From IMG/VR virus record IMGVR_UViG_3300042731_004976, positions 103,993 through 167,992 of that record: a stretch of DNA of 64,000 nt; one strand, given 5' to 3'. The translations under genes were made by a program, and so were the position numbers. This DNA is from a virus. Positions 25,936 to 50,909 of this stretch are shown here, in pieces. The notes beneath the pieces were generated by a model. The model was given only the letters and a program-made list of their open reading frames with translations, was not told where the DNA came from and did not search any database. Every line of letters begins with the position of its first letter. The stretch's first letter is position 1.

Positions 25936-26712
25936 ATGAAGATCATGGAAGGTGTCGAGCTGGATCCGAAGGAGTTTCGGGAACAAGCGGGGCTAGTGCC
26001 CCGATTCCCGGGTCTGCTGACTGAGGCTCAGAAGACGCTGACCTCTCAGGAGGTCGAACGTCTTCCCGAAGGCTCCCTCGTGGTTCCCAAGTCGGACTTG
26101 GGCATGTACTTGGTCCGAGTGCCCGGAGGTGTTGCGCCGATCACCATACTGCCGAAGCAGGCAGGCGGCGGACTTCCCGATGGGGAGGGATCCAAACAGT
26201 TCGGCAACGAGTTCGACTTGATCGTGAAGGGACGAGGCAAGGTTCCCACGCACAGCACGGCTGTGCGCCTCGTCACCGCTTGGGTACGTAGCCTACCTGT
26301 GCCTCGTCGGGAGTCTCGTTTGTCCGAAGCTGCGGTGTGGGACTCTGAGCGCTTCTGCGACGCCGTCCAGAAGCAAGCGAAGGCAAAGATCGGTAACAAG
26401 TATCTTCACTGCGATCACTACAACCAGTTCAACGACAAGCACGACCACGTGATCATCACCTTCGTGAACCTAGAAGGTCGTCCGGTCGGAGCTTCGGCCA
26501 TGAACAACAGAACGCAGTTCACGGTGGACGGGTTCGCGGCTCAGCTTGGACAGGATCCCCCGACAGGCAAGGTGAAGGTCAAGCAGCTCTCGGGCTTCGT
26601 CGGTAAGCAAGCTGGCTTGAAGTTTCGCGCCAAGACGGGTACGCCCGAGCAGATCGTCAAGTACCTCGTCGACTACATCGGACAGCTCGCGGAACTCGAA
26701 CCCAAGAGCTGA
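25936..26712 (+). CDS. Putative virion-packaged protein with N-terminal tag
   Basis: A 258-aa protein. Residues 1-20 (MKIMEGVELDPKEFREQAGL) match the N-termini of several other genes here. LLTE|A at residues 30-34 fits the (L/I)xE|A cleavage rule of T4-type prohead proteases. The mature part is mixed alpha/beta with a conserved-looking HCDHYNQFNDKHDHV segment; no family recognised. It may be loaded into the head and injected into the host. Confidence 0.6.
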   Translation: MKIMEGVELDPKEFREQAGLVPRFPGLLTEAQKTLTSQEVERLPEGSLVVPKSDLGMYLVRVPGGVAPITILPKQAGGGLPDGEGSKQFGNEFDLIVKGRGKVPTHSTAVRLVTAWVRSLPVPRRESRLSEAAVWDSERFCDAVQKQAKAKIGNKYLHCDHYNQFNDKHDHVIITFVNLEGRPVGASAMNNRTQFTVDGFAAQLGQDPPTGKVKVKQLSGFVGKQAGLKFRAKTGTPEQIVKYLVDYIGQLAELEPKS

Positions 26713-26730
26713 TTCCTCTTGCATGAGACC

Positions 26731-26750
26731 GGGGACTCACTACTGTCCCC
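26731..26750 (+). other. Hairpin GGGGAC...GTCCCC
   Basis: A 6-bp stem with an 8-nt loop after the tagged gene; there is no T-run, so terminator function is uncertain. Confidence 0.35.
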
Positions 26751-26757
26751 GACGCCT

Positions 26758-26952
26758 ATGAGGAAGTTTTCCGAAACGCACGGGCCGGACGCGGTCTGCA
26801 CGATCTGCGGCTCGTACGTTACCTCTTACCTAGACGTCGAAACGCGCGTCATTCGCATCCACTGCCCTGGTTGCGCTTCGCGCAAGTCACGACCCCCTTC
26901 ACAACCGACGCTCGATGCTGAGGGCGACGCTTCCGGGGGTCTACTGGCGTAA
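26758..26952 (+). CDS. Zinc-ribbon protein
   Basis: A 64-aa protein with CTIC and CPGC about 24 residues apart, a treble-clef-type spacing. The ATG at 26758 lacks a ribosome site; a TTG at 26719 is the alternative. Confidence 0.5.
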   Translation: MRKFSETHGPDAVCTICGSYVTSYLDVETRVIRIHCPGCASRKSRPPSQPTLDAEGDASGGLLA

Positions 26953-26961
26953 AACTCCTTG

Positions 26962-26970
26962 TGGTATGCT
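26962..26970 (+). promoter_or_regulatory. Class II (extended -10) promoter
   Basis: TGGTATGCT; ATG 26979 is 9 nt after the hexamer. Confidence 0.5.
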
Positions 26971-26978
26971 TCGTGGCC

Positions 26979-27770
26979 ATGAAGATCGTCGAGGACGTGG
27001 AGTTAGATCCTCAAGCGTTCCTTCTCGTTGCGGGAGTGCGATCTTCTTTGCCCTCCTTGGGAGAGGCGCGGCGCAAGCGAGTCAACACCAAGAAGATCGA
27101 AAAGGTCTTTCAGCAGACCGTCGAGCGAGTGGCTCGTGACTTGGAATCGTACGAGACCCCAGCTTCTATTGGTACAGGGCTGTTTGCTTCGGCGAGCGAC
27201 GCTCTGTCAGGTGCCGTGGACGCGAATTTGGAACGACTCGATCGCGTTTTGGGGGCTAAGAAGTTCCAAGCAGGAAGACAGGATCGAACTGAAGACTCCT
27301 ACGAGTTCTCGGACAATGCCTACGTGAGCTACGAGATCGAGTACCCCAAAACTGTCAGCTCTGTGGTTTCCTTCAGATTGGATCCTGTGGACGTCGTTGG
27401 CGGCGCTCTGCGGGACGACTGGTCTGAATACAAGGAGTGGCTGCCCGAGTTCTTGAAGCAGCGAGAGATTCGATCTGCGATCGAAGATCTTGCGCAGTCC
27501 GTGCTTCCGGAAAACAACAAGGATCATACTCCCACGAGTAAGGTAGCGGACGACGCTGTGGAGTTCGCCTACCAGAAGATGCACACGGACTACGATGTGG
27601 ACGATGACGACAGACCCGACGTCCCCGTGGAGGCCAGAGCCAAGCTTACCGCCTGGAGCCTGAGTCGAGAGGTTTCCATCAAGAGCGGGAAGATGCTCGT
27701 GCGGTCCGATGTGGAAATCAGGGCCGAGGTCTTGTGGCCCGGAGACCCTGAGTACCACGACTACTTCTGA
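26979..27770 (+). CDS. Putative virion-packaged protein with N-terminal tag
   Basis: A 263-aa protein starting MKIVEDVELDPQAFLLVAGV, a variant of the shared tag, followed by SLGE|AR, a possible prohead-protease site. The mature part is charged and helical, then strand-rich, with an Asp-rich stretch near residue 210. No family recognised. ATG 26979 is chosen because the tag begins there. Confidence 0.6.
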   Translation: MKIVEDVELDPQAFLLVAGVRSSLPSLGEARRKRVNTKKIEKVFQQTVERVARDLESYETPASIGTGLFASASDALSGAVDANLERLDRVLGAKKFQAGRQDRTEDSYEFSDNAYVSYEIEYPKTVSSVVSFRLDPVDVVGGALRDDWSEYKEWLPEFLKQREIRSAIEDLAQSVLPENNKDHTPTSKVADDAVEFAYQKMHTDYDVDDDDRPDVPVEARAKLTAWSLSREVSIKSGKMLVRSDVEIRAEVLWPGDPEYHDYF

Positions 27771-27773
27771 GCC

Positions 27774-27802
27774 TTGACCATCCTCTTCCTATATGGGATG
27801 GT
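27774..27802 (+). promoter_or_regulatory. Class I promoter
   Basis: TTGACC at 27774-27779, a 17-bp spacer starting ATCC, GATGGT at 27797-27802. ATG 27811 is 9 nt after the -10. Confidence 0.6.
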
Positions 27803-27810
27803 CCGGAGGC

Positions 27811-28317
27811 ATGTCCGATGACCTCATGGCGGAGTTCCAGGCTGCGGCTGTTCGTCAGTTCGGTTTGGACAAACCGTGGCCTGTCGTTGCGATCTTCGAT
27901 GCCGTACCCGGATGGCATGCGGTTACGCGAGAAGCGACAGAGCTATCCAATCCCTCAGACGAGGATCGGGAGCTGGGCATGAAGTACGTCATCATTCGCG
28001 CGTTCCCCATCAGCAAATGGGGCATGACCTGCCCGCCTGAGTACTACAAGGGGCCTGCGTTCTCCGCGCCTGAGGAGGGAGGGATCAGCGGGGCTCTCCT
28101 AGGAGCCCTGGCTCGGATGGGAGGGACCCGCACTCCTCACGTTTTCCTGCCCCTCGATCCGAGAGAAGACGAGCCCTCGTTCTTCCGTGTTGACCAACTG
28201 TGGGGTGTGTATCCTCCATCAGAAGGGACCGCGAAGGAGGTCATCGAGAAGGCGAAGGCTGCGCTACAAGAAGAGTCCGACAAGCTTCTGGCTCAGAAGC
28301 AGAAGGAACGCAGATGA
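27811..28317 (+). CDS. Hypothetical protein
   Basis: A 168-aa protein. ATG 27811 fits the promoter spacing; an earlier ATG (27793) lies inside the promoter. Contains PWPVVAIFDAVPGWHAV near the start. No family recognised. Confidence 0.6.
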   Translation: MSDDLMAEFQAAAVRQFGLDKPWPVVAIFDAVPGWHAVTREATELSNPSDEDRELGMKYVIIRAFPISKWGMTCPPEYYKGPAFSAPEEGGISGALLGALARMGGTRTPHVFLPLDPREDEPSFFRVDQLWGVYPPSEGTAKEVIEKAKAALQEESDKLLAQKQKERR

Positions 28318-28709
28318 ATCCGTCTTGTCCCTGCACGCACGCGACTCCTTGCCACCCCCGATGCACCTGCGTTAGTGGAGGCAGCTCGGTCGGATGCAAG
28401 CGTTGCTGCTCGTACGGTAGTCCCGAGCAGCAAGCTGCTGCTGCGAAGCGCATCGTCGAAGCTCTCGACGGCTATCGTCCCAAGAAGGGTCTCCCTTACT
28501 GTCAGCAAGTTGGATACATGCGCGGGGTGATGTTGGCTCTGGCTAAGGATCTTGCATACGCAGAGAACATGGGGATGGTGGCCGAATTGATGGAGCGCGC
28601 GTTCGAGCTGTTCGGTCTGGACGAGATTCCTCTGGACCCCTCCGGGTTGATCGACGGTCAAGCCCTAGATCGCTTGGGGGTCGACTCCGTTTGGAAGATC
28701 CCCTCATGA
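28314..28709 (+). CDS. Cys-rich N-terminal protein
   Basis: A 131-aa protein with nine cysteines in the first 33 residues (CPCTHATPCHPRCTCVSGG), which suggests a metal cluster, followed by a helical domain. Function unknown. Confidence 0.55.
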   Translation: MNPSCPCTHATPCHPRCTCVSGGSSVGCKRCCSYGSPEQQAAAAKRIVEALDGYRPKKGLPYCQQVGYMRGVMLALAKDLAYAENMGMVAELMERAFELFGLDEIPLDPSGLIDGQALDRLGVDSVWKIPS

Positions 28710-29071
28710 TTGCCGAGCGGCTTGTCTTCGTCAGTGCTCTCCTCTTTGGTGTGAGTCACGTCTGTAGTGCAACGGAACCCGTGGAGCAGGTCCAGGAAGG
28801 TTTCTGGCGCGTCGATCCCGTTCTTCCCTCGGTACGAGAGACGTACGAAGCGCCCGAGTACTATAACGGCCCCGACGGTTGGATTCAGGGCTACCCGTCT
28901 CCGAAGTGCAGCTCTTCGAAGACGTGCGTAGCGAACGGGTGCGAGACTCATGCTCTTCGCTGGTCTTGGGAGGATCCTCGTGAAGAGCCTACGTGGCCTA
29001 CCAACCTGATTGGATGCGAGTGCTCGTCAGGCAGGCCGGCGTACGTGTCCTGTCTCTATGAGGTGGATTGA
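28706..29071 (+). CDS. Exported Cys-containing protein
   Basis: A 121-aa protein with a signal peptide (residues 1-22, cleavage near CSA). The mature part has six cysteines and many Trp/Pro, consistent with a disulphide-bonded periplasmic protein. Confidence 0.6.
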   Translation: MIAERLVFVSALLFGVSHVCSATEPVEQVQEGFWRVDPVLPSVRETYEAPEYYNGPDGWIQGYPSPKCSSSKTCVANGCETHALRWSWEDPREEPTWPTNLIGCECSSGRPAYVSCLYEVD

Positions 29072-29397
29072 TGTTTTACGACCTAGTCGAGAGGGTGCTT
29101 TACTCAGGTCTTGTTGCCTTGGGAGGCGTGGTCTTCGGGATCTGTATAGGTGGGCTCATCGGTACTCGCCATGAACGAGATCGTTGTCTTGCCCTCTTGT
29201 GCCTCATCCATTCGAAGTTCCGGCTGCGCTCCAAGGGGGACGCTCTTCTGAATGTGGTCACGGATGACATAGCCAAGGGAACGAAGGCCCGAGCCTTTTC
29301 GGCGCGGCTTCAGAAGATGCAGTCCGCGAAGGGCGGTCTGCCTCACGAGGGGCACGAAACGTCTGAGGACGAAGTCATTCTCACCGAAGACAAGTAG
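29071..29397 (+). CDS. Membrane-anchored small protein
   Basis: A 108-aa protein with one hydrophobic Gly-rich helix at residues 11-33, then a basic helical domain likely in the cytoplasm. Function unknown. Confidence 0.6.
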   Translation: MFYDLVERVLYSGLVALGGVVFGICIGGLIGTRHERDRCLALLCLIHSKFRLRSKGDALLNVVTDDIAKGTKARAFSARLQKMQSAKGGLPHEGHETSEDEVILTEDK

Positions 29398-29409
29398 CTG
29401 TCGGTGGAG

Positions 29410-29415
29410 TATCCT
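29410..29415 (+). promoter_or_regulatory. Class II-like -10
   Basis: TATCCT 9 nt before the ART start codon; the upstream TG is replaced by AG. Weak match. Confidence 0.35.
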
Positions 29416-29423
29416 TCGCCCTG

Positions 29424-30314
29424 ATGCCCGCGGCCCTGTCCCACCTGATCTCAGAAGCCTACCTCGCGGTCGAGGCGGAAACCCCCGATCAGTACCGAGA
29501 CCGTACAGGCCGTTGTCCTCGTGGCTACCGTTTCGCTCAGGACAAGGATCGCTGTCTCACCAAGCAAGGCGTCAGCAAGACAGAACCGAGTACGGAGAAG
29601 GAAACCTTCGCTCCCTCACCCGAGAAGGTGGAGGCCATGGCGAAGCACGTGGACGCCGTGGACAAGGCGTTGGGGTTGAATCCTATCGAGGCGTACAGGA
29701 ACCGCGCGTCCCTTCCGACTGTGTTGCGTGACGAGTTCGACAGGCTCCCGAAGGAATCGCAGTTCTTGATCAGTACGGCTCAAGCAGCGAGCTACGAGTT
29801 CGAGCACTCTGTGGTGAAGAAGAAGCCGTTCCACGATCGCGTGTGCGGAGCGTGGGCAGAGGACACGAGTGCCATCGACGCGCATCGTATCCAGGGGGCT
29901 CTTGCCGCCAAGGGTGTGAATGGGAGCCCTGCGCCAGACGATCCCGATGCATCCTCCGTACGCAAGGAGGGCGCGGACAGCCAGGATTTCAACGACTGGA
30001 TCGATGATGTCCAAGCGTTCACGCAAGCCTACCTCAAGAAGCACGGGATCGAGGAGGTCACCGTGTACCGTGGGGTGAAGGGTCAGTTGGAAGGCGTGGA
30101 GAAGGGGGACGACATTGGCATCGCTTGTCGCGAAGCGTCCTCGTTTTCCTTGAGCCCTCGGCAGGCGAAGCGCTTCTCGGACAACGTGATCGCCATGAAG
30201 GTGCCAGCGTCTCGCATCCTGATGACTCCGGTGACCTCCTCCGAGTTGGTTGCGTTGGGCGAACACGAGATCGTCGTCATGGGTGCCTCGGATCTCAAGG
30301 GAGTCTTGGTATGA
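29424..30314 (+). CDS. ADP-ribosyltransferase, probably virion-packaged
   Basis: A 296-aa protein. The C-terminal half has the arginine-type ADP-ribosyltransferase triad: Arg in VTVYRGVKG (around residue 216), the Ser motif in ASSFSLSP (around residue 240) and the ExE motif GEHEIVVMG (around residue 278). The family moves ADP-ribose from NAD to protein or nucleic acid; T4 Alt and ModA are phage examples. The N-terminus MPAALSHLISE|AY carries a possible prohead-protease site, so like Alt it may be injected with the DNA. Residues 18-60 form a basic Cys-containing linker. Targets unknown. Confidence 0.8.
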   Translation: MPAALSHLISEAYLAVEAETPDQYRDRTGRCPRGYRFAQDKDRCLTKQGVSKTEPSTEKETFAPSPEKVEAMAKHVDAVDKALGLNPIEAYRNRASLPTVLRDEFDRLPKESQFLISTAQAASYEFEHSVVKKKPFHDRVCGAWAEDTSAIDAHRIQGALAAKGVNGSPAPDDPDASSVRKEGADSQDFNDWIDDVQAFTQAYLKKHGIEEVTVYRGVKGQLEGVEKGDDIGIACREASSFSLSPRQAKRFSDNVIAMKVPASRILMTPVTSSELVALGEHEIVVMGASDLKGVLV

Positions 30315-30466
30315 AGGTCATACGCATGAGCGCTGAAAACGAGAACTGGCTTCGCAAGAAGGACCGCAAGCGCAAGAAGAAGCGCGAGGCTCTAAGCGCA
30401 GATCAGAAGATCGAGGACTTGAGCAGAGAGTTGGACGCCGTGGGCTGCGTACCGAAGAAGGATTGA
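30311..30466 (+). CDS. Small Lys/Arg-rich protein
   Basis: A 51-aa protein overlapping the ART stop by 4 bp, with about one third Lys/Arg. Likely binds nucleic acid; no family. Confidence 0.55.
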   Translation: MKVIRMSAENENWLRKKDRKRKKKREALSADQKIEDLSRELDAVGCVPKKD

Positions 30467-30469
30467 CCC

Positions 30470-30775
30470 CTACTTGCGGCCCTTGTAGCCGGCCTTCTTC
30501 GCCTGTTTGAAGGCTTGGTCAATTGCCTTGTTCTCTGCGTCAGGTCCCTTCCAAACCCGAGCGGTGTCCAGGGCCATGTTTGCGTCCGTATCCCACAGCG
30601 TGACGGAGACTCCGTTCGTGATGCGGGCGACCTTCACTGCCGTTCCGTCCTCCGGGATCTCGTAGACCTTGATGACCTCGGTTTTCGTCTCGGACATCGG
30701 AGGCATGTGTCTCAGCGCACCCGCCCCCGCTAGCAGAGTTTTCGCATCCAGCTCCAGCCCTTCGACGATCTTCAT
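30470..30775 (-). CDS. Putative virion-packaged protein with N-terminal tag
   Basis: A 101-aa protein starting MKIVEGLELDAKTLLAGAGA, with PPMSE|T as the possible cleavage site (residues 25-30). The mature 70 residues are strand-rich and end in a Lys-rich helix. Convergent with the preceding gene. No family recognised. Confidence 0.6.
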   Translation of the reverse strand: MKIVEGLELDAKTLLAGAGALRHMPPMSETKTEVIKVYEIPEDGTAVKVARITNGVSVTLWDTDANMALDTARVWKGPDAENKAIDQAFKQAKKAGYKGRK

Positions 30776-30785
30776 GGGTCTGAGA

Positions 30786-30794
30786 AATCTACCA
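30786..30794 (-). promoter_or_regulatory. Class II (extended -10) promoter
   Basis: Minus strand TGGTAGATT; start codon 11 nt after the hexamer. Confidence 0.4.
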
Positions 30795-31132: not shown

Positions 31133-31138
31133 GGTAGG

Positions 31139-32913: not shown

Positions 32914-33129
32914 ATGAAGACTGTACATACGATCGATGCTGGTCGTCTTCTTGTGATTCTTCGATCCGATGGGCAAGTGTACGTGGCAGACAAGTCTGAC
33001 GTGGACACGTCATCGTTTGGATCCTTCGCGGAGAAGGCGAAGCCTGTAGCAAGCTCGGCTCCCGGTTGTGATGGCCTGGCCGACGCGCTGCACGAGATGG
33101 CGACCTTCATTCGGGAGCACAAGTCATGA
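32914..33129 (+). CDS. Hypothetical protein
   Basis: A 71-aa protein preceded by GAGGAG; strand-rich N-terminus (RLLVILRSDGQVYVAD) and a C-terminal helix. ATGA overlap with the AAA gene suggests linked roles. Confidence 0.55.
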   Translation: MKTVHTIDAGRLLVILRSDGQVYVADKSDVDTSSFGSFAEKAKPVASSAPGCDGLADALHEMATFIREHKS

Positions 33130-34340
33130 TGGAGTTCCTCAGATCTATCCTGGAGAACCAGATCTTCAGCGGAATCATGGGCGGCTCCGTAGTCGTCTCG
33201 ATTCTCTACTGGTTTCGAGAAGTACCCGTGCGGCTCTACCGCCTCTTGTCCTGGCATCTCACTACGGAGCTGACGGTCTTCAGCGAGGACGTATCGTTCG
33301 AAGCGCTGGACTCTTGGCTGGCTCAGCGCGATGCTGCGAAGCGCGCCAGGACGTTACGTCTCATTTCCAAGTGGGACGATAACAACAGACGGGATCAGTT
33401 CCAGGTGACCTTTGGTCTTGGTGCGCATTGGCTTTGGTACAAGGCGCGGCCTGTACTCATCGAGCGCGAGCTAGCGAACAAGGACAACCCGCCCGTGGGA
33501 GCAGGCCGTCGACAAGAGACGCTCAAGGTGAAAACCATAGGCCGATCGCATAAGTTGATCTTCGACCTCATCGAAGAGGTGGTTGCGCACCATTACGGCG
33601 ACCTATCCAACTTCATCACGGTGTACCTCTACAGAGGCTATTGGCGGCAGGTTGCGCGCAAGGACAAGAGGAGCCTCAACACGATCGCGATGTCCGAGAC
33701 GCAGAAGGCGGAACTCGTCCAGGACATAGAACGGTTCCTCGAAGCTCGGGCGTGGTATACCGAGCACGGGGTTCCGTACCGTCGAGGATACCTGCTCTAC
33801 GGACCTCCGGGATGCGGCAAGACAAGTCTCGTGTTCGCCCTCGCTTCCTATCTTTCGAAGCGCATCTACGTCTTGAACATGGGTAGCATCAGCGACGACG
33901 ACGGTCTCATCGACGCGATGACCTCGGTCCCGGAGGATGCGATCCTTCTCATCGAGGACATAGACGCCGCGCAGAAGGATCGAGCCACGCAGGTAGTACA
34001 GGAAGAACCTCCTTCCGCTATCGGCGGTTCGGAGAACAAGAAAAAGGTCGAGGCGAAGAAGCTCACCATGAGTGGGCTGCTTAATGCGATCGACGGTGTG
34101 TTCAGTGCGGAGGGGCGTATCCTTGTGATGACGACGAACTACGAGGATCGCATCGACAAGGCGCTCTTGCGCCCTGGTCGGGCCGATGTTCGGGTTCCAG
34201 TGATGGAGATCGAAGAGGAAGAAGCGCTTGCCATGTGTCAGCGATTCGGGGTCGAGGAGATTCCGAAGAACATCGCTCCCGATATTCCCGTGCCCGCTGC
34301 GCAGCTACAAGAAGAGCTGCTTCGGCGTAGAGTTGCTTGA
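33126..34340 (+). CDS. BCS1-like AAA+ ATPase
   Basis: A 404-aa AAA ATPase. GPPGCGKTSLV (around residue 225) is Walker A, ILLIEDIDAA (around 273) Walker B, and LVMTTNYEDRIDKALLRPGR the sensor and arginine-finger region; the latter pattern is typical of BCS1. Residues 12-30 are hydrophobic, like the BCS1 membrane anchor. BCS1 moves folded proteins across the mitochondrial membrane; bacterial and phage relatives are poorly known. It may remodel or translocate a protein at the host membrane. Confidence 0.8.
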   Translation: MMEFLRSILENQIFSGIMGGSVVVSILYWFREVPVRLYRLLSWHLTTELTVFSEDVSFEALDSWLAQRDAAKRARTLRLISKWDDNNRRDQFQVTFGLGAHWLWYKARPVLIERELANKDNPPVGAGRRQETLKVKTIGRSHKLIFDLIEEVVAHHYGDLSNFITVYLYRGYWRQVARKDKRSLNTIAMSETQKAELVQDIERFLEARAWYTEHGVPYRRGYLLYGPPGCGKTSLVFALASYLSKRIYVLNMGSISDDDGLIDAMTSVPEDAILLIEDIDAAQKDRATQVVQEEPPSAIGGSENKKKVEAKKLTMSGLLNAIDGVFSAEGRILVMTTNYEDRIDKALLRPGRADVRVPVMEIEEEEALAMCQRFGVEEIPKNIAPDIPVPAAQLQEELLRRRVA

Positions 34341-34997: not shown

Positions 34998-35275
34998 AGC
35001 GCCGCCGCTACTTGCTGCCATATATTCGACGACGGAGTCCGAAGGACAAGTCCGAGTCGTTGAAGGTTGCTTACCGCATGGCGTACCTAGGAGAGAACTG
35101 TGTCGTCTTGGTACAGCGGGGGTACCCGCACCTGGTGATGTGGGCAGACAGGACGAAGCGAGATCTACTTCGGAGCATCGTACATGTTCGTCGACCGAAC
35201 GCTCGTAGCTTCCGGCAGTGGGCCAACCGTTTCGCTCGTCATGCCAGATCCGTTACGTTTGGTGGAGTTGAATGA
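34994..35275 (+). CDS. Basic Arg-rich protein
   Basis: A 93-aa protein from GTG with many Arg/Lys (pI high). It precedes and overlaps the RNB exonuclease gene by 4 bp, so it may bind RNA. Confidence 0.55.
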   Translation: MKRRRYLLPYIRRRSPKDKSESLKVAYRMAYLGENCVVLVQRGYPHLVMWADRTKRDLLRSIVHVRRPNARSFRQWANRFARHARSVTFGGVE

Positions 35276-37074
35276 TTACGATCGACGGCAAAGGTACGAA
35301 GGACATCGACGACGCGATCTGGGTGGAGCGCTCCCCTTCAGGGTGGGTCGTGTCCGTTGCCATCGCCGATGTGTCGAAGGACATCAAGAAGGGTTCGACG
35401 TTGGACAAGCGTGCCGAGGAAGTCGTGGCTACGCGCTACTTCGCAACGGGCAACAGTCCGATGTTCCCTCGGCGCTTGTCGGAGCAGAAGCTATCGCTCT
35501 GGCCTGGTGAGCCGAAGGACGTTGTCATCATCAAGATCGAGTTGGACTCCTATCTGCACGTCAAGGAGGTTTCGCTGAGCGACCTGAAGCCCCTCGTGAG
35601 CCAGGCGAAGCTCTCGTACGAGGAGATCCCAATCATCCTCCAGGAGGACTACAACACCGCGACAAGCGTGTTGATCGCGAACGCTGTCTTGAATGCTAGA
35701 GACCTTTCTCTCCAACTCATGCAGAGGCGGAGGAGCAACGGAGCCTTCGTTGTCTACGACTTGAACAATGGGTGGGTTACCACGGAAGAGGGGTTCATCA
35801 AGAGGATCGAGAAGAAGGAAGAGGTTGTCGGTCAGATCATCATCCAGGAGCTGATGATCTTGGCCAACACCGAGGTTGCCAAGCTGGCGGTTGAGCATGA
35901 CGTACCCGTCGTCTTTCGAAACCACGAAGCTCGGATAGCAGCTCCGGATCGTGAGGAACTGATGGAGCAGATCCAGAACGCGCACGCGATCCCCTTGGAG
36001 AACCTCGACACGCTTCGGCAACGTACGCACATGCTACTCGGTCGTGCCGACTACGGTGCCTCTCTCCGGGGGCACTACGGATTGAACCTTCCGGCCTACC
36101 TCCACTTCACCTCGCCCATTCGACGGTTCGTGGATCTGGTGAACCATCGGCAGCTCAAGGCTCACCTCCGAGGCGATCGATTCCCGTACACGAAGGACGA
36201 CATCCGAGATATCTGCAAGCACGTCAATGAGGTGGAGGAAGCCGAGAGGCAATCGACTCGCGAGCACTTCAAGGGGGAGCACGAGAAGCGGGTGGAGTCG
36301 CAGGCCGTGTCCGTTCGTCGCATCGAAGGGTTCAACGCCAAGGACTTCGAGCGGCTCACCAAGGTGCAGGTCCGCTCCGGAGAGGACCCCTCTCCAGAGT
36401 ACGTTGCGGGTTATCAGCGCCGGCTCAAGGAGGGGCGGGTTCCTCTCTTGTGCCAGGTCGTAGTGCTGGCCGAGGCGCCTCAGACAGAGGCGTGGACGGA
36501 CCTGAAGGAGCAGACGCTCCAGGCCATGGAAAAGACCCCTCAGGATGCCGTCAGCGCCCTTCTACAGGCTTCCCAGGGCATGGGGTGGCCCGAGGTCTCC
36601 TATCAGCTCGCGGGCCGCTCAGGACCCAGCCACGCGCCGTCGTTTACCGTTTATGCCTACCGGAAAGGTCTAGGGCGTTTTCCGGGGGTTGCGTCCAGTC
36701 GGAAGGTGGCTCAGCAGCTTGCAGCTTTGGCTTTGCTGCGGGCGGCCTCGCTAGGGCTCCAGGCGCCCGAGGACGGGGGTTTGCCGCCTCCTGAGGCCGA
36801 GCCCTTGGAGCCTGCCAAGAAGGTCTCTCAGGACCCCTTGACGGAGCCAGGGAAGAATCCGGTGGCGGCTCTCCAGGAGCACTCCCAAAAGACCGGAGGG
36901 ACTCCGCCTCTCTACGACTTTGAGCAGGTGGGGCCGGACCACGTTCCGAAGATCACGTGTACTGTCACATATGGCAAACGCACGGTTGAGGCTACGGCGG
37001 GGTCGAAGAAAGAAGCAAAGCGGCAGGCTTCGGCGCTGATGGTGGAGCAGTTACGGGTTGCGGAAGCGTCGTGA
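35272..37074 (+). CDS. RNB-family exoribonuclease with tandem dsRNA-binding domains
   Basis: A 600-aa protein. Residues 1-330 are an RNase II/R catalytic (RNB) domain: GTKDIDDAIWV (residues 8-18) holds the metal-binding aspartates, and HFTSPIRRFVDLVNHRQL (around residue 283) is the second conserved block. The usual cold-shock and S1 RNA-binding domains are missing. Instead, residues 425-490 and 530-595 look like two dsRNA-binding motifs (GSKKEAKRQASALMVEQL is the typical last helix). It should degrade RNA 3' to 5', perhaps structured RNA. Start supported by a 4-bp overlap. Confidence 0.8.
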   Translation: MITIDGKGTKDIDDAIWVERSPSGWVVSVAIADVSKDIKKGSTLDKRAEEVVATRYFATGNSPMFPRRLSEQKLSLWPGEPKDVVIIKIELDSYLHVKEVSLSDLKPLVSQAKLSYEEIPIILQEDYNTATSVLIANAVLNARDLSLQLMQRRRSNGAFVVYDLNNGWVTTEEGFIKRIEKKEEVVGQIIIQELMILANTEVAKLAVEHDVPVVFRNHEARIAAPDREELMEQIQNAHAIPLENLDTLRQRTHMLLGRADYGASLRGHYGLNLPAYLHFTSPIRRFVDLVNHRQLKAHLRGDRFPYTKDDIRDICKHVNEVEEAERQSTREHFKGEHEKRVESQAVSVRRIEGFNAKDFERLTKVQVRSGEDPSPEYVAGYQRRLKEGRVPLLCQVVVLAEAPQTEAWTDLKEQTLQAMEKTPQDAVSALLQASQGMGWPEVSYQLAGRSGPSHAPSFTVYAYRKGLGRFPGVASSRKVAQQLAALALLRAASLGLQAPEDGGLPPPEAEPLEPAKKVSQDPLTEPGKNPVAALQEHSQKTGGTPPLYDFEQVGPDHVPKITCTVTYGKRTVEATAGSKKEAKRQASALMVEQLRVAEAS

Positions 37075-40469: not shown

Positions 40470-40802
40470 TCACTGCTGGGTGGAGCAGGCTTCGCGCTCG
40501 TCGCAAGACTCCATCTCGGCAATGCACTCGGGATGAAGGTCGACGCCGTTCTTCTGGGCGTTCTTGAAAACGTCCGGACACTCGACACCTCCAGGAGTGG
40601 GCTCCCAAAGGTTGCGTCCGTCTCTGGATTGACATCCGAGTTCTTCGAAACGCTGGCATGCAGCTTCGTTGACATCGGGAGTGGGCTCGATGGGTTTGGC
40701 CGGTTCCGTCGTGGGCGCCGGTTTGTCCTCGGGCGTGACTGGGGGTTGAAGCTCGCACGCCAATGCGAATGCGAGAGGGATCAGGAGTAGTAGGGATCTC
40801 AC
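40470..40802 (-). CDS. Small lipoprotein
   Basis: A 110-aa protein from GTG, overlapping the upstream stop by 4 bp. The signal peptide ends in the lipobox ALAC (Cys at residue 16). A Pro/Thr-rich linker follows, then five cysteines. Last gene of the envelope cassette. Confidence 0.65.
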   Translation of the reverse strand: MRSLLLLIPLAFALACELQPPVTPEDKPAPTTEPAKPIEPTPDVNEAACQRFEELGCQSRDGRNLWEPTPGGVECPDVFKNAQKNGVDLHPECIAEMESCDEREACSTQQ

Positions 40803-41614
40803 AGCGTAAACTCCTTTGCGTTGTCGATGGCCCACCAGTCCGTGGCCTGGTTCCAGTTCACCCACTCCCACGCCATGCGGAAGAAGCCCGCGGAGAAGCG
40901 TCCGGTGGGATCGGGACTTCCCCAGTCGAGACCCCACGAGTTTGCGATCCAGAGGCCCTCCTCGTCATAGGCTACGGCGCACATCATGTGTCGTCCGATC
41001 GGAGTCGAACGAGGGATGCCCAGAGTCTCGATGGTAGCCTGGTGATAGTCGTCGAACTTGTCGTCAACCAACGAGCCGAAGACCACGGGATGGTTCTTCG
41101 AGATCGCTGCCTTGACCTCCACGTCACGTCCGTAGAGCAAGCCCCAAATGTTGTAGTAGCCGTCGAGCCACTTCTGATCGATGGCGCCCGAAGTTGCGTC
41201 GTAGTCCGGTTGCGTGTTCACTTTCGAGCGATCGAAAGGCCACAGTTCTTCGGTGCAGAAGCCCATCCCTGCGGCAGCCTTCCACGCTTCACGAGGAACG
41301 CAGCCTCCATCGACGTTCTGAACGCCGGTACGCTTTCGCGTGTGGAAGTAGCCATAGAGGCGGGAGAGGAGCTTGGGATCTGGAACCCCCTTCACCTTCT
41401 GCCCGATGTAGTGCTGCGTCTGGATGGCATTCCACACGCAGGAGTTCGTGTGCCCTTGCTCGTTGATTCCGTGCATGAGGGCGATGAGGTCGAAGTGTTC
41501 CTTTGGGATGTCGGGGGGAACGACGGCTCCGAAGAGCGCCCCGTCGTCACCCACCAACTTCCGATCGCGGTCGTCGATGGGTGACGGCTGAAAGCCTAGA
41601 TTGTGCTTTGCCAA
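40799..41614 (-). CDS. Papain-like (C1) cysteine peptidase
   Basis: A 271-aa protein. The active-site Cys is in QGHTNSCVWNAIQ (around residue 59), the His in GRHMMCAVAY (around residue 207), and the Asn in IANSWGLDWG (around residue 222), in the order of C1 peptidases. No signal peptide. TTG 41614 is chosen because GGGAG lies 8 nt upstream. It lies between two lipoproteins and a membrane protein, so a role in lysis or envelope change is possible. Confidence 0.75.
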   Translation of the reverse strand: MAKHNLGFQPSPIDDRDRKLVGDDGALFGAVVPPDIPKEHFDLIALMHGINEQGHTNSCVWNAIQTQHYIGQKVKGVPDPKLLSRLYGYFHTRKRTGVQNVDGGCVPREAWKAAAGMGFCTEELWPFDRSKVNTQPDYDATSGAIDQKWLDGYYNIWGLLYGRDVEVKAAISKNHPVVFGSLVDDKFDDYHQATIETLGIPRSTPIGRHMMCAVAYDEEGLWIANSWGLDWGSPDPTGRFSAGFFRMAWEWVNWNQATDWWAIDNAKEFTL

Positions 41615-46066: not shown

Positions 46067-46079
46067 GCGGGAGGGGAGA

Positions 46080-47057
46080 TCAGAACTTGGGGGGTTCGTC
46101 GTCCTCGGGCTTGTTTTCGGCTTCGAAGACCTTGAAGAACTCGGAGCGGGTGAGGTTTTGCCACACCGCGACCAGGCGACCGTCGGCGCCCTTCATGACC
46201 TTGTAGATGAGATCGCCGTTTTCATCGTCGCGCTTCTTGACCTCGTGAACGAAGAACCTGATCCACTGACCTTCTTCGACCCAGATCGCACGGTAGTAAC
46301 GATCCTCATCCTTGGCGACTTTGCATCCAGAGCGTCCTGAGGATAGGAAGCACTCGTTTCCGGCCGAGTCTGTGACCAACTGCGGGTGAGATCGGTTGGT
46401 GAAGATTTCGTGTACTAGGCATCCGGTAGTTACCAGTTTCCCGTTCCGGTGGATCGTGGCACTTCCGAAGATCAGTACTGCTACTTCTTGTCCGTCTCCG
46501 GAGTCGATGTAGGACAGCGGGTTCTTCAGATCACCTCCGCCAAGGAAGTTCGGGTAGCTGCCCTCGTCCTCGTAGGTCATGTCGCAGAACCCCTGCATGC
46601 TTGCTTCCATTAGCTGCTTGCAAGTATCTGCGACTGCGTCGAGCACGGAGCGCTCCTTGTTTGCCTCCTGCATCTTCTGGATGGGGTTCGGTGGCGCGAC
46701 GGCTGCGTCTGGTGTGGCCAGCGCCGCTGCCTTTGCCGGAACCTCGGGTTCCTTGGGAGTTTCCGAACTCCCTGGCGAGGAGTCCTCTTCGACGGCGTTG
46801 TTCTTCTTCAGCGCGTCGATGACGAGCTGAGGCATCAGCTCAGGAGGCAATCCCGTTGTCAGCTTCTGAAGCAGTAGGCGTGAATGCCACCTGCCCCCAT
46901 TGGCAACGAAGTCGAGTTTGGAAGCCACGCTCGCCGCCCAGGCAGCCCGGTAATCCGGGGGGACGTGAACGATTGCTTCATCCAAGGCCACCTGCATGAT
47001 CTCAGCAGAATAGCCCTTCTTGGTAGACCCCTGAGAGGTCTTCGCGATGTCCGTCAT
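46080..47057 (-). CDS. Hypothetical protein
   Basis: A 325-aa protein: helical N-terminus, an Ala/Pro/Glu-rich linker (residues 90-125), and a strand-rich C-terminal domain. No family recognised. The upstream gap (47058-47320) has no gene apart from hairpins. Confidence 0.6.
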   Translation of the reverse strand: MTDIAKTSQGSTKKGYSAEIMQVALDEAIVHVPPDYRAAWAASVASKLDFVANGGRWHSRLLLQKLTTGLPPELMPQLVIDALKKNNAVEEDSSPGSSETPKEPEVPAKAAALATPDAAVAPPNPIQKMQEANKERSVLDAVADTCKQLMEASMQGFCDMTYEDEGSYPNFLGGGDLKNPLSYIDSGDGQEVAVLIFGSATIHRNGKLVTTGCLVHEIFTNRSHPQLVTDSAGNECFLSSGRSGCKVAKDEDRYYRAIWVEEGQWIRFFVHEVKKRDDENGDLIYKVMKGADGRLVAVWQNLTRSEFFKVFEAENKPEDDEPPKF

Positions 47058-47269
47058 TGTCTAGCGTCTCTCTACGTCCTCGAAGGAACGTTGTGCGAGT
47101 TACTGGTCGATTGGTGGATTCTTCGCGATGACTAAGCCGACAGTTCCTGAACTCCGAGAAGGCGCGCCCTTCCTGTTCAGGCCGACCCCTTGCGGGGGTC
47201 TCGTTACTTCAGACTTTGAGTACGGAAAACTTCCGTAGGGGTCAATGCTATTTTGTAGAAGCCGCAAAA

Positions 47270-47285
47270 GCAGCAAAAAAGCTGC
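47270..47285 (-). terminator. Possible intrinsic terminator
   Basis: On the minus strand GCAGC-TTTTTT-GCTGC followed by TTTT, downstream of the gene ending at 47321. Short stem. Confidence 0.4.
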
Positions 47286-47300
47286 CGCTTCGTGCCCACC

Positions 47301-47329
47301 TTGACAATCCCCTGAGCGCTCTATGTCTC
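47301..47329 (+). promoter_or_regulatory. Orphan class I -35 element
   Basis: TTGACA plus ATCCCC, but the -10 position reads TGTCTC and the next gene is on the opposite strand. Either inactive or a source of antisense RNA. Confidence 0.25.
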
Positions 47330-47623
47330 GGCGTCGGGCACGAGATGCACCTCTTCCCACTCCTGAAGAGGGATGGTCTTGCCCGCGTAGGAGTGTGTGC
47401 AATCCGACAGGTACTGCACCTTCCCCTCTCGGATGAACACGTGGCAGAGGTGGATGCTGCGTACGCGGATGGAGGGGTTCACACTCGGTCCCTTGGGGAG
47501 CTGCGTGACCTTCCAGATCTTTGCGTCGACCCAGTGGTACATCTGGCAGCCCGGACACCACCACGTGTGCGTGATGTTGGGATGCGACTTCAGGATCAAA
47601 TCTCGGCGTACGCGCTCGTGCAC
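47321..47623 (-). CDS. DUF6527 family protein
   Basis: A 100-aa protein. WWCPGCQMYHWVD, SVNPSIRVRS, CHVFIREGKVQYLSDCTH and GKTIPL match the conserved order of DUF6527, a common phage family with a probable Cys/His metal site. No function is known. Confidence 0.75.
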   Translation of the reverse strand: MHERVRRDLILKSHPNITHTWWCPGCQMYHWVDAKIWKVTQLPKGPSVNPSIRVRSIHLCHVFIREGKVQYLSDCTHSYAGKTIPLQEWEEVHLVPDAET

Positions 47624-47633
47624 GGAAAACTCC

Positions 47634-48074
47634 CTAATTGTCGAAGCTCTGTTTGTCGTCGAGGAACGCCATGAACTTGGTCCTCCCTCGAATGCGTCCG
47701 GGTTCGAGGAGATCGAGAAGCTCGGGCTTGAGCTTGGTGAGACGCAGTAGCGCCAAGCCTTCGGGAGGGCACTTCACTTCCCACCGCTTGAGGGTTCCGA
47801 AGGGTAGGGACAGAACCCGTTCGAAGTACGGATCTGTGATGCCTTGGCCCCGGAGTCCTTGGATCAAAAGGAAGGCGACGTGTTGCCTCGCTCGTCCCAA
47901 CGCTTCCTCGATCGCATCGTCGTTGTCTCCCCAGTAGAGGTGGCAGCTAGCGCATGTGTGGAAGGTGCCCACGTAGGTAACCCCGCCCTCCATCGGGAGG
48001 ATGGCTTGGTCCTTGTGGGTTTGGATCTCGTCGTCCTTGGCCCCGCACGCGGGGCATTCTACTTCGTCCGCCAT
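47634..48074 (-). CDS. MqsA/YgiT-like zinc and HTH protein
   Basis: A 146-aa protein. CPACG (residue 6) and CASC (residue 35) form the N-terminal zinc site; residues 75-140 (FERVLSLPFGTLKRWEVK) resemble an XRE-type helix-turn-helix as in the MqsA antitoxin. No partner toxin is visible, so a transcription regulator is more likely. Confidence 0.6.
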   Translation of the reverse strand: MADEVECPACGAKDDEIQTHKDQAILPMEGGVTYVGTFHTCASCHLYWGDNDDAIEEALGRARQHVAFLLIQGLRGQGITDPYFERVLSLPFGTLKRWEVKCPPEGLALLRLTKLKPELLDLLEPGRIRGRTKFMAFLDDKQSFDN

Positions 48075-48082
48075 GGCCCGAG

Positions 48083-48091
48083 AGTCTACCA
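48083..48091 (-). promoter_or_regulatory. Class II (extended -10) promoter
   Basis: Minus strand TGGTAGACT; ATG is 9 nt downstream. Confidence 0.45.
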
Positions 48092-48122
48092 GATGCTGCC
48101 TTTGCGTGGACGTACGGTCTTC

Positions 48123-48151
48123 TTGACAATCGCTCCCCTTTGGGTTGGACT
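48123..48151 (+). promoter_or_regulatory. Class I promoter
   Basis: TTGACA (48123-48128), a 17-bp spacer starting ATCG, TGGACT (48146-48151); ATG 48158 is 7 nt after the -10. Divergent from the class II site. Confidence 0.65.
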
Positions 48152-48157
48152 GGCGTG

Positions 48158-49447
48158 ATGCACTCTGAGAGTCGGACGCTCCGCGAGGGGGCGTCTCCTC
48201 CGTTGGAGCCTGCGCAGGCGGTTGCTGCGCTGGGCCTGGATTTGTCTCCTGACCAGAAGGAGGTTTTCCACAGCCTCTATGATTGGATGGGGGCTCGGAA
48301 GTCCGGAACACTCACCTTCGGTGGGTACGCTGGCACGGGTAAGACCACGCTAGTGAGCGTGTTGGCAAAGGCGTTCGATCCTCAGCGCAAGATCGCCTTC
48401 TGCGCGCTCAGCGGTCGAGCTGCTTCGGTGTTGCGGGGCAAGTTGCTAGACATCGGCATCCGCACAGGCGAGGGAACGGATCACTACTGTGGCACGATTC
48501 ACGGACTGCTCTACAGAGCGAAGACGGATCGCAATGGGAGAATCGTCGGATGGATGCGTAACCCTTCCGTGCAGGAATACGCGACCATCATTTTGGATGA
48601 AGCCTCGATGGTTTCGGAAGGGGTGTACAAGGACTTGGCATCGGAGGGCGTACCGATCCTTGCAGTAGGAGACCACGGTCAGTTGTCCCCGGTAGAGGGG
48701 CGTCGAGACTTCGGGCTGATGTTGAAACCGCAGTTGACGCTCACCAAGATTCACCGACAGGCCGAAGGAAGTCCGATCATCAAGTTGTCCCAGACCATCC
48801 GAGAGACCGGAGGGTTCAGTGCGAGCGTTGCAGATAAGGAGTCCATTTGGGTAGCGGGGAAGTCACATCTGAAGACTGCGATCAATCACTTGGCGAAAGA
48901 GCCTGCCGAGCATCTTTTGGACCGCGCGTTCCTCTGCTATCGAAACGCTACTAGATCCCAGGTCAACAACTTGTTCCGTGCTGCGCGCTTTGGTGGATCT
49001 CCTCCTGAGAATCCCCAGCAAGGCGAGCTGGCGATCTGTCTGAAGAACAGCAAGAACGAGGGCGTGTACAACGGCTATCGCGGAGTCGTTACGAAAACGT
49101 TCAAGCTACAGGGAGAGCATCACTTCAAGGGCAGCGTCGACTTCCCCTCGGAGAACCTGACGATGAACGGGGCTCGCTTCTCTCGATGGCAGTGGGGGTA
49201 CCCCAAGACCTTCAGTGGCTTCGACGAGATGCACGAGTACGGGTTCTCGCCTTCGAAGTGGGATCAAGTCGGCCACCTGTTTGACTTCGGGTACTGCCTG
49301 ACGGTACACAAGGCGCAAGGTAGCCAGTTCAGCCGTGTGTTCATCGTAGTCGAGCGCCCGGGTCCCGTGGACGATGACACGTTCCGCCGATGGCTCTACA
49401 CAGCGGTGACACGGGCTGAGGAGCGCGTGTTCCTCTTCCAGGGGTGA
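48158..49447 (+). CDS. RecD/Dda-type SF1 helicase
   Basis: A 429-aa helicase. GGYAGTGKTTL (around residue 54) is motif I, IILDEASMV motif II, VGDHGQLSPV motif III, and TVHKAQGSQF with YTAVTRAEERV motifs V-VI. Order and length match Dda-like phage helicases that unwind DNA 5' to 3' at origins or forks. Confidence 0.88.
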   Translation: MHSESRTLREGASPPLEPAQAVAALGLDLSPDQKEVFHSLYDWMGARKSGTLTFGGYAGTGKTTLVSVLAKAFDPQRKIAFCALSGRAASVLRGKLLDIGIRTGEGTDHYCGTIHGLLYRAKTDRNGRIVGWMRNPSVQEYATIILDEASMVSEGVYKDLASEGVPILAVGDHGQLSPVEGRRDFGLMLKPQLTLTKIHRQAEGSPIIKLSQTIRETGGFSASVADKESIWVAGKSHLKTAINHLAKEPAEHLLDRAFLCYRNATRSQVNNLFRAARFGGSPPENPQQGELAICLKNSKNEGVYNGYRGVVTKTFKLQGEHHFKGSVDFPSENLTMNGARFSRWQWGYPKTFSGFDEMHEYGFSPSKWDQVGHLFDFGYCLTVHKAQGSQFSRVFIVVERPGPVDDDTFRRWLYTAVTRAEERVFLFQG

Positions 49448-49450
49448 GGA

Positions 49451-49816
49451 CTAGGAGTCGTTCCAGGTCTCGTCTCGGAGAGGTATGTCGGTCGACACCT
49501 TTCGGAGAATGTTCACCGAGGTCCTATTCACCTCGTCAGCCGGGAACGTCTGGTAGTTGCCTACCTGCGTGATCAGAAAGACGCTGTCCGTGCCCGAGGG
49601 CTTGATCACGAAGTAGTACTCGTTGTAGTGAAAGGTCGGATCCGTACGGGTGTCCTGAGTCCAGCCGGGACCCAAGCGACGTCGGATCTCATCCGCCAGC
49701 TTCTTCATGTAGTCGCTGGATACAGCGGCCTCGGTCAGAGTCGGAAACCTCCGAGTGATGCCCGCGCGCTCACGGAACTCTTTCGGATCCAGTTCTACGC
49801 CTTCCAGGATCTTCAT
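49451..49816 (-). CDS. Putative virion-packaged protein with N-terminal tag
   Basis: A 121-aa protein starting MKILEGVELDPKEFRERAGI, almost identical to the tag at 25936, with LTE|AA at residues 27-31 as cleavage site. The mature 90 residues are mixed alpha/beta. No family recognised. Confidence 0.6.
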   Translation of the reverse strand: MKILEGVELDPKEFRERAGITRRFPTLTEAAVSSDYMKKLADEIRRRLGPGWTQDTRTDPTFHYNEYYFVIKPSGTDSVFLITQVGNYQTFPADEVNRTSVNILRKVSTDIPLRDETWNDS

Positions 49817-49822
49817 GGGAGA

Positions 49823-49831
49823 AGCCTACCA
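49823..49831 (-). promoter_or_regulatory. Class II (extended -10) promoter
   Basis: Minus strand TGGTAGGCT; ATG 7 nt downstream, same as at 25921. Confidence 0.5.
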
Positions 49832-50197
49832 CGGCGGTCGCGTCAGAAGCCAGAGCGCGAGTCCGTGGTAGTCCTCCCAGGATTTCTGTTGATCTCTCTG
49901 TACTTCCTCGTCGTCCGGCTCTGCGAACTGAGAGACGAAGCGCACGAGAAACCCGGTCTCTTCCCCCAGAGGCGTTGGATCTCGATCCCGTTTGCCGTAC
50001 AGCATCCGGTTCGGCCAGCGACCCCCTCGCTCAAATCCCCAGTCCACGGCTCCTCGGCGGACGCAGAGGACGTCGATCGACTCCCGGAACCCTGCGTCAG
50101 GGCCTCCTAGAAAAGCGCACAGCGCCTCAGCTCGGGCCTCCGTGGGGAAAGGATCAGAGATGAACTCGTGTCTGGCTGTCTCGCTGGTGCGTCCCAT
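49826..50197 (-). CDS. Hypothetical protein
   Basis: A 123-aa protein; the start overlaps the end of the tag gene 50154-50330 by 44 bp. Rich in Arg, Asp and Trp. No family recognised. Confidence 0.5.
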   Translation of the reverse strand: MGRTSETARHEFISDPFPTEARAEALCAFLGGPDAGFRESIDVLCVRRGAVDWGFERGGRWPNRMLYGKRDRDPTPLGEETGFLVRFVSQFAEPDDEEVQRDQQKSWEDYHGLALWLLTRPPW

Positions 50198-50330
50198 ACA
50201 CGAGAGACGCCGAGCGACTCACGCATCTGACACAGGGTCCGCAGATTTCTGAGGGGCTCCCGCCTGCTCCAGGCGGTGCCGTTCGAGCCGCTCGCTCGAA
50301 GGGGTCGAGGTCGCAGTCCCCGATCTTCAT
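50154..50330 (-). CDS. Short protein with tag-like N-terminus
   Basis: A 58-aa frame starting MKIGDCDLDPFERAARTAPP, a diverged form of the shared tag, followed by a Cys-rich end (CGPCVRC). ATG overlaps the upstream stop (ATGA), which supports translation. It may be only a packaged peptide, or a decayed member. Confidence 0.45.
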   Translation of the reverse strand: MKIGDCDLDPFERAARTAPPGAGGSPSEICGPCVRCVSRSASLVYGTHQRDSQTRVHL

Positions 50331-50596
50331 CGTACCGGTTTCCACTCGGAGACCGCAGCTTCGAGCTTGTCGATCGCGAAGTAGACCTGCTCGCGTTCCT
50401 TGAGCGAATCGAGCGAGCGGCTCTCGCTCAAACTCCAGAGGCGCGAGGCAGACTCTTTGGCGTCGGCCAACGCCTTCTGGAGCATGGCGATGTGACGACG
50501 CTCGGGAGAGACTGCTTCCTCGATCGGCTTCTTCTTGCCCACGCCTCTCGTGAGCTTTCTGAATTCGTCGATGTCTAGACCTGGGATTTTCGGCAC
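50327..50596 (-). CDS. Putative virion-packaged protein, variant tag
   Basis: An 89-aa protein starting MPKIPGLDIDEFRKLTRGVG, a further variant of the tag, with PIEE|A near residue 28 as possible cleavage site. The mature part is a charged helix. No family recognised. Confidence 0.5.
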   Translation of the reverse strand: MPKIPGLDIDEFRKLTRGVGKKKPIEEAVSPERRHIAMLQKALADAKESASRLWSLSESRSLDSLKEREQVYFAIDKLEAAVSEWKPVR

Positions 50597-50606
50597 CTTC
50601 GTTCTC

Positions 50607-50909
50607 CTAGCTGAGGCGGGGGACGCCCTTGAATCTCTTGGTGTAGCCCTTCAGAACCCGCAGGTCCCGCACGTCGTGCTTCTTGTCCTCGGGGTGGCCT
50701 GCCCAACGCACTTGTGCCTTGTCCCCGGTCACCGTTCGAACTTCACCCTCCATGCCGGCAAGGCGTGGTTCTTGATCGCCGATGTAGCGAACGATGTCCT
50801 TGGGCTTGGCCTTCTTCCACGCTTCGGTCATGGGCGGCGTATGACGCAGATCGCGAGCATGCTCGTTGAGAGTTTTCGGATCCAGCTCCAAGCCTTCGCA
50901 GATCTTCAT
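50607..50909 (-). CDS. Putative virion-packaged protein with N-terminal tag
   Basis: A 100-aa protein starting MKICEGLELDPKTLNEHARD, with PPMTE|AW near residue 30. The mature part (about 70 aa) is basic with SH3-like strands (VRYIGDQEP, GEVRTVTGDKAQVRWAG). Confidence 0.6.
   Translation of the reverse strand: MKICEGLELDPKTLNEHARDLRHTPPMTEAWKKAKPKDIVRYIGDQEPRLAGMEGEVRTVTGDKAQVRWAGHPEDKKHDVRDLRVLKGYTKRFKGVPRLS

What the first reader, a model, noticed from the sequence alone, without database searches (positions are those of the whole stretch)
25936..50909. A shared N-terminal tag with prohead-protease-like sites marks seven proteins as candidate injected effectors
Seven otherwise unrelated proteins (25936, 26979, 30470, 49451, 50154, 50327, 50607) begin with variants of MKIxEGxELDPKxF. 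In six of them a (L/I/M)xE|A/T site follows about 10-15 residues later (LLTE|A, SLGE|A, MSE|T, LTE|A, IEE|A, MTE|A); none is clear in the 58-aa member at 50154. In T4, internal proteins share a short N-terminal capsid-targeting sequence cut after (L/I)xE by the prohead protease. The most economical reading is a phage-specific packaging tag that lets diverse proteins be loaded into the head and injected. The ADP-ribosyltransferase at 29424 has an LISE|A site too. No such family with this tag is known to me.
Basis: partly seen in the sequence, partly recalled or inferred. Interest (0 to 1): 0.88.

Follow-up and report, generated by a model that had tools for sequence, protein, structure and literature searches.

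The report
Phage capsid-targeting leader on unrelated proteins
An uncultured T4-type phage puts the same 29-residue leader, ending in a predicted cut site for its own capsid protease, on about nine otherwise unrelated proteins, which probably marks them for loading into the virus head and delivery into the host at infection.

Summary
The core of the finding holds; the count does not. Five of the seven named proteins carry the tag. The 58-aa ORF at 50154 is not a credible gene, and 50327 is a real gene that does not match the tag. Outside the window the 168-kb record has three more full members and one half-tag member, nine in all. The tag spans about 29 residues: MKIxEGxELDPKxFxxxxxxLRxxPxLxE|A. 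It closes on [LIM]xE at residues 20-34 in 9/9 tagged versus 35/241 other proteins (Fisher 8e-8). The bodies are mutually unrelated, and same-residue codons in the tags have diverged. The phage encodes an S77 prohead protease related to T4 gp21. One tagged ADP-ribosyltransferase has a 51%-identical homologue in a huge phage whose N-terminus lacks the tag. A related S77 phage carries a different leader, M(K/R)xx(Y/F/W)xEWA, on at least seven unrelated proteins, three directly upstream of its protease and major capsid genes. Most likely these are T4-internal-protein-like cargos with a lineage-specific capsid-targeting leader, cleaved in the prohead and then injected. The principle is known from T-even phages; this leader and this use in an uncultured lineage are new. 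Virion location, cleavage and injection are inferred, not shown.

The parts
25936..26712 (+). Tagged protein, 258 aa; leader 25936-26025 ends LLTE|A; predicted mature part 228 aa, pI 9.5; no known domain
26979..27770 (+). Tagged protein, 263 aa; leader 26979-27065 ends LGE|A
30470..30775 (-). Tagged protein, 101 aa; leader 30689-30775 ends MSE|T
49451..49816 (-). Tagged protein, 121 aa; leader 49730-49816 ends LTE|A
50607..50909 (-). Tagged protein, 100 aa; leader 50823-50909 ends MTE|A
25921..25929 (+). Extended -10-like element TGGTAGGCT, start codon at +7 (would give a leaderless mRNA)
26962..26970 (+). Extended -10-like element TGGTATGCT
30786..30794 (-). Extended -10-like element TGGTAGATT
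49823..49831 (-). Extended -10-like element TGGTAGGCT
50917..50925 (-). Extended -10-like element TGATAGGCT
29424..30314 (+). Candidate cargo without the tag: ADP-ribosyltransferase (PF07357 DRAT, E=2.5e-6) with N-terminal LISE|A and a -10-like element GTATCCT upstream
50327..50596 (-). Genuine gene in the same run as 50607 with PIEE|A near its N-terminus; not a tag member by profile (0.4 bits). Uncertain cargo

Best explanation
The leader is a capsid-targeting sequence. During head assembly it docks each carrier protein into the prohead core. The phage's S77 protease then cuts after (L/I/M)xE at the end of the leader and leaves the mature body in the head with the DNA. At infection the bodies enter the host, where at least the ADP-ribosyltransferases would act as early effectors, as T4 Alt does. 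Shown here: the shared leader, its fixed terminal site, unrelated bodies, the protease, leader swapping relative to one homologue, and an independent leader family in a related S77 phage. Inferred: docking, cleavage, packaging, injection and effector function.
For: Nine leader-bearing proteins versus a null maximum of 11.4 bits. Site enrichment at residues 20-34: 9/9 vs 35/241, Fisher 8e-8; with A/S/T after it 7/9 vs 9/241, 3e-8. No body-body similarity better than E=0.046 among tagged proteins; same-residue codons identical in only 50% of 385 comparisons, so selection is on the peptide. S77 protease with invariant GELDHP and VGVSSRG, its own N-terminus ending in a conserved (I/L)(T/S)E. The 313-aa gene two upstream of the protease, in the position of a prohead core protein, has the highest density of such sites in the genome (10; P=1.7e-5 before correction for 286 genes), with homologues beside the protease in relatives. 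Tagged ADP-ribosyltransferase (PF18760, 5e-10) has a 51%-identical huge-phage homologue lacking the leader. The same scan recovers T4 ipI/ipII/ipIII as its top three pairs. In relative G035 another leader marks at least seven body-unrelated proteins, three directly upstream of the S77 protease and major capsid genes. 5/9 tagged genes vs 5/277 others have a leaderless extended -10 (Fisher 2e-6), shared with an endolysin-like gene. Mature pI is 9 or more in six of nine.
Against: No virion proteomics. The site enrichment is not independent of common descent of the leaders. One member ends LPE|D and another LFE|Q rather than xE|A. The core-protein role of the 313-aa gene rests on position and site density. 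The leader occurs only in this phage and one near-identical contig, so conservation across lineages cannot be tested. Only one tagged body (the PF18760 protein) has a recognised enzymatic fold; another looks like an ADP-ribosyltransferase by eye only. 'Late' for the shared promoter rests on one endolysin-like gene.
Confidence: 0.74

Rival explanations
1. The leader is a shared cytosolic docking module, for example for a host or phage enzyme, on accessory proteins made and used inside the infected cell; the LxE ending is coincidental.
For: Most bodies are unknown and dispersed in accessory regions; no packaging data exist.
Against: A site of the protease's type at the leader end in every member, an S77 protease in the genome, and a parallel leader set beside the protease in G035.
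Confidence: 0.14
2. The leader targets proteins to the virion but is not removed: a permanent core-, capsid- or tail-binding tag.
For: In some members the site departs from xE|A (LPE|D, LFE|Q). In P1, DarB reaches the capsid through an N-terminal targeting signal (PMC9024508).
Against: Conserved LxE at a fixed place after otherwise variable linker residues.
Confidence: 0.08
3. Recombination debris: the 5' ends of genes were copied around the genome with their promoter, without a function for the peptide.
For: Five members share both the -10-like element and the leader.
Against: Synonymous codons differ in half of same-residue comparisons, tag-region DNA identity is mostly 44-61% (two pairs near 0.7), while MKIxEGxEL is kept.
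Confidence: 0.04

Closest known systems
T-even phage internal proteins (IPI, IPII, IPIII and relatives) with the capsid-targeting sequence MKTYQEFIAE|A
   Same: Unrelated bodies joined to one short N-terminal leader that ends in a gp21-type xE site; several per genome; small and often basic; encoded outside the head module (T4 ip genes; PMC12373910, PMC3012670, PMC5694885)
   Different: No sequence similarity of the leader; about 29 residues instead of about 10 in the T4 IPs; at least one tagged protein is, and another looks like, an ADP-ribosyltransferase; the phage is far from T4 (major capsid protein matches in the phage database all below 60% identity)
T4 Alt, the packaged and injected ADP-ribosyltransferase
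   Same: ADP-ribosyltransferase, with N-terminal propeptide removal expected
   Different: Different ART families (PF18760, and untagged PF07357); leader unrelated
Phage P1 DarB N-terminal capsid-targeting signal
   Same: N-terminal signal that carries a defence protein into the head (PMC9024508)
   Different: Shown for one protein; not a short shared leader found on many
Giant-phage propeptides (SPN3US, phiKZ ejection proteins)
   Same: N-terminal propeptides cut after xE by the head protease (PMC10052503, PMC5694885)
   Different: Mostly 111-254 residues; not one short leader shared by unrelated bodies

Membership tests
T4-type internal proteins / capsid-targeting-sequence cargos | Unrelated proteins share one short N-terminal leader | tested here: met
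T4-type internal proteins / capsid-targeting-sequence cargos | Leader ends in a prohead-protease-type (L/I)xE site | tested here: met
   9/9 have [LIM]xE in residues 20-34
T4-type internal proteins / capsid-targeting-sequence cargos | Genome encodes a gp21-type (S77) protease | tested here: met
T4-type internal proteins / capsid-targeting-sequence cargos | Leader sequence homologous to the T-even capsid-targeting sequence | tested here: not met
   MKIxEGxELDP... versus MKTYQEFIAE (T4 leaders); no credible phage-database match to the tag consensus
T4-type internal proteins / capsid-targeting-sequence cargos | Present in the virion, cut by the protease, injected | not testable with these tools
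   needs virion proteomics
Peptidase_S77 (PF03420) | Family score over cut-off and conserved catalytic motifs | tested here: met
   70.3 bits vs cut-off 27; invariant GELDHP and VGVSSRG in five relatives
ADP-ribosyltransferases (PF18760, PF07357) | Family score over cut-off | tested here: met
   L007:4654-5463 (tagged) and window 29424 (untagged)
ADP-ribosyltransferase fold for L007:2801-3289 (tagged) | Recognisable family or fold | tested here: inconclusive
   LYRG...GTNF by eye only; no Pfam or PDB match; AlphaFold2 model too poor to use

The most novel reading that the evidence does not exclude
Short, lineage-specific and sequence-unrelated capsid-targeting leaders, each ending in an S77 site, are a general device of T4-type phages. 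Each lineage has invented or replaced its own: T4 MKTYQEFIAE, this phage MKIxEGxELDP...LxE, G035 M(K/R)xx(Y/F/W)xEWA, perhaps G022 MxxLIxEA. Scanning for repeated N-termini next to an S77 protease would then reveal whole injected-effector sets in uncultured phages.
Probability: 0.5. Interest if true: 0.75.

Novelty: new variant of a known kind. Interest (0 to 1): 0.64.

Why it matters
Injected proteins are the first phage products to meet host defences, and outside the T-even phages very few are known because their bodies have no recognisable homologues. A leader readable from sequence gives a direct list of candidates (nine here, including one confirmed and one possible ADP-ribosyltransferase), a predicted mature N-terminus for each, and a search method that works on uncultured phages. 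The leader could also serve as a packaging signal for delivering proteins with a laboratory phage.

Tried and rejected
The 58-aa ORF at 50154 rejected as a gene; 50327 rejected as a tag member. The leader was searched in 35 related contigs: only one near-identical contig carries it; the other E<=1 matches are 14-18-column partial hits at 11-14 bits. Homologues of the 258-aa body: none in phages, viral contigs or bacterial genomes; bodies at 26979, 29424, 98801 (phages) and 99837 (viral contigs): none. PADLOC: no hit. AlphaFold2 single-sequence models too poor to interpret (pLDDT 31.6 and 49.3), so no fold search was run. A shared short leader in relative G022 (four proteins) came from a self-trained profile and is kept only as a hint. 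A portal gene upstream of the G035 core cluster was looked for and not found, so only the position next to protease and capsid genes is claimed. tblastn of the tag consensus against phages gave only chance-level matches, E of 2 or more.

Full report
WHAT WAS CLAIMED. Seven unrelated proteins in the window share an N-terminal MKIxEGxELDPKxF tag followed by a prohead-protease-like site, read as a packaging tag for injected effectors.

CHECKING THE OBSERVATION. The window is the last 64 kb of a 167,992-base virus record. I took the rest of the record, called genes with a hexamer model, built a profile of the tag and scored every start-anchored peptide of the record. Five of the seven hold: 25936, 26979, 30775(-), 49816(-) and 50909(-), at 62-75 bits. 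Two do not. The 58-aa ORF 50154-50330 scores 0.7 bits and has the codon statistics of non-coding DNA. Gene 50327 is a good gene without the tag. Outside the window there are three more full members, at genome 46664 (112 aa), 98801 (162 aa) and 100654 (269 aa), and one, 99837 (270 aa), with only the second half of the tag. Five residue shuffles of the same peptides gave at most 11.4 bits. An independent search lists the same nine places, and a seed-free all-against-all comparison of N-termini puts tag pairs at the top.

ANATOMY. The tag is about 29 residues long: MKIxEGxELDPKxFxxxxxxLRxxPxLxE|A. The nine ends read LLTE|A, LGE|A, MSE|T, LTE|A, MTE|A, LFE|Q, LSE|A, LPE|D and LQE|A. All nine have [LIM]xE in residues 20-34 against 35 of 241 other proteins (Fisher 8e-8); with A, S or T after it, 7/9 against 9/241 (3e-8). 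Common descent of the tags makes these counts less than independent, but the triplet stays while its neighbours vary. The bodies behind the tags show no mutual similarity better than E=0.046. Among codons for the same residue, only half are identical between members, so the tags are old copies kept by selection on the peptide. Predicted mature proteins are 8-28 kDa, six of nine with pI of 9 or more.

THE PROTEASE AND THE HEAD MODULE. It is there, at genome 28435-30108, fused to a long C-terminal region: Peptidase_S77 E=1.3e-20, PHROG head maturation protease, and the T4 gp21 crystal structure 5jbl as its only PDB relative, E=1.5e-11. Catalytic-type motifs GELDHP and VGVSSRG are invariant in relatives, and the protease's own N-terminus ends in a conserved (I/L)(T/S)E. 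Next to it lie a T4-type portal and a T4-type major capsid protein with a conserved (F/L)LE|G near the N-terminus. The 313-aa protein two genes upstream of the protease has the highest density of hydrophobic-x-E-[ASG] sites in the genome and homologues beside the protease in relatives, with several sites kept. That is what a shredded prohead core protein would look like, but this is inference.

MODULARITY. The tagged protein at genome 100654 is an ADP-ribosyltransferase (PF18760, E=5e-10). A 485-kb uncultured phage (LR745208.1) encodes a 51%-identical homologue whose N-terminus lacks the tag, and the tag occurs nowhere in that record; no S77 protease was found there either. A second tagged protein (98801) looks like an ADP-ribosyltransferase by eye only. 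The protein at 29424 is another ART by sequence (DRAT, E=2.5e-6). It has LISE|A eleven residues in but not the tag, and could use a short T4-style leader.

CO-REGULATION. Five of nine tagged genes have an extended -10-like element (TGNTA[GTA][GAC]NT) 7-11 bases before the start codon, against 5 of 277 other genes (Fisher 2e-6). Other tagged genes have weaker versions. There is no TTGAC box at these, unlike another class of promoters in this phage that would also give leaderless mRNAs. One of the other five genes with the element is endolysin-like (peptidoglycan-binding domain E=4.6e-10; PHROG endolysin), which hints at late expression. I hold this as supporting, not decisive.

RELATIVES. Thirty-five contigs with related capsid or protease genes were found. 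The tag is absent from all but one near-identical contig, so it is specific to this lineage; many of the contigs are short fragments, which limits what absence shows. I then asked whether relatives have leaders of their own. As a control, the same scan on 49 kb of T4 returned ipIII/ipII/ipI as the top three pairs. In contig G035 (S77 protease E=1e-13; capsid gene PHROG 138) at least seven proteins with unrelated bodies begin M(K/R)xx(Y/F/W)xEWA, close in style to T4's MKTYQEFIAE. Three are consecutive and lie directly upstream of the protease and capsid genes. A weaker group of four short leaders in G022 (MLDDLITEA, MFEDLIEEA and so on) is only a hint.

INTERPRETATION. The most economical account is a capsid-targeting leader in the T4 sense: docking into the prohead core, removal by the S77 protease after xE, body left in the head and delivered with the DNA. 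[quoted passage not shown] T-even internal proteins are a highly diverse set with only the leader in common (PMC3012670), and they inhibit different type IV restriction enzymes (PMC12373910). [quoted passage not shown] Shown here: leader, site, protease, modularity, parallel system in a relative. Not shown: presence in virions, cleavage, injection, function of the bodies.

NOVELTY. The design is known; this leader, its length, its cargo and its lineage are not. I file it as a new variant of a known kind. The wider reading, that T4-type lineages each carry their own unrelated leader, is supported by three cases (T4, this phage, G035) and would be worth a systematic survey.

Noticed in passing
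L116:17435(-), L117:16212, 11498, 10722, 10039, 5098, 4143 (all -); contig IMGVR_UViG_3300027881_000042: A different shared leader M(K/R)xx(Y/F/W)xEWA on at least seven body-unrelated proteins of a related S77 phage, three of them directly upstream of its protease and capsid genes.
   Followed up: partly
L083:17239, 16928, 16191 and L091:15132 (all -): Four proteins of another relative (G022) with short leaders of the type MxxLIxEAxxL(L/I); suggestive only, the profile was trained on them.
   Followed up: partly
genome-wide, e.g. L003:11481, L005:8044(-), L007:5617, window 4083, 16076, 39024(-): Many genes have a TTGAC...-10 promoter whose -10 box ends only a few bases before the start codon with no Shine-Dalgarno, as if transcribed leaderless.
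   Followed up: partly
window 37098, window 39150, L006:17664, L007:2431: Four phage proteins begin with twin-arginine-like signal peptides (MDRRSFLLGAVSIPVAG, MDRRSVLKFLTTLPVIGG, MKRRTFLQGLSVLPAVG, MKRRAVLQFLSSLPLLG).
   Followed up: no
window 29424-30314 and L003:4957-6045: The untagged ADP-ribosyltransferase and a basic 362-aa protein share an ESPEQHRRRTGRCPPGFxxxxxxC-like N-terminal motif; both have -10-like elements just before the start.
   Followed up: partly
window 35272-37074: 600-aa protein that looks by eye like an RNase II/R-type exonuclease with C-terminal double-stranded-RNA-binding-like repeats.
   Followed up: no
window 33126-34340: 404-aa AAA ATPase resembling the BCS1 chaperone by eye, unusual in a phage.
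   Followed up: no
window 40799-41614: Papain-like peptidase by eye (PHROG 'peptidase', E=6e-5) between two lipoprotein-like small genes.
   Followed up: partly
L007:3289-3822: 177-aa protein between tagged genes with a weak indole-3-glycerol-phosphate-synthase match (E=1.4e-5, just under cut-off).
   Followed up: no
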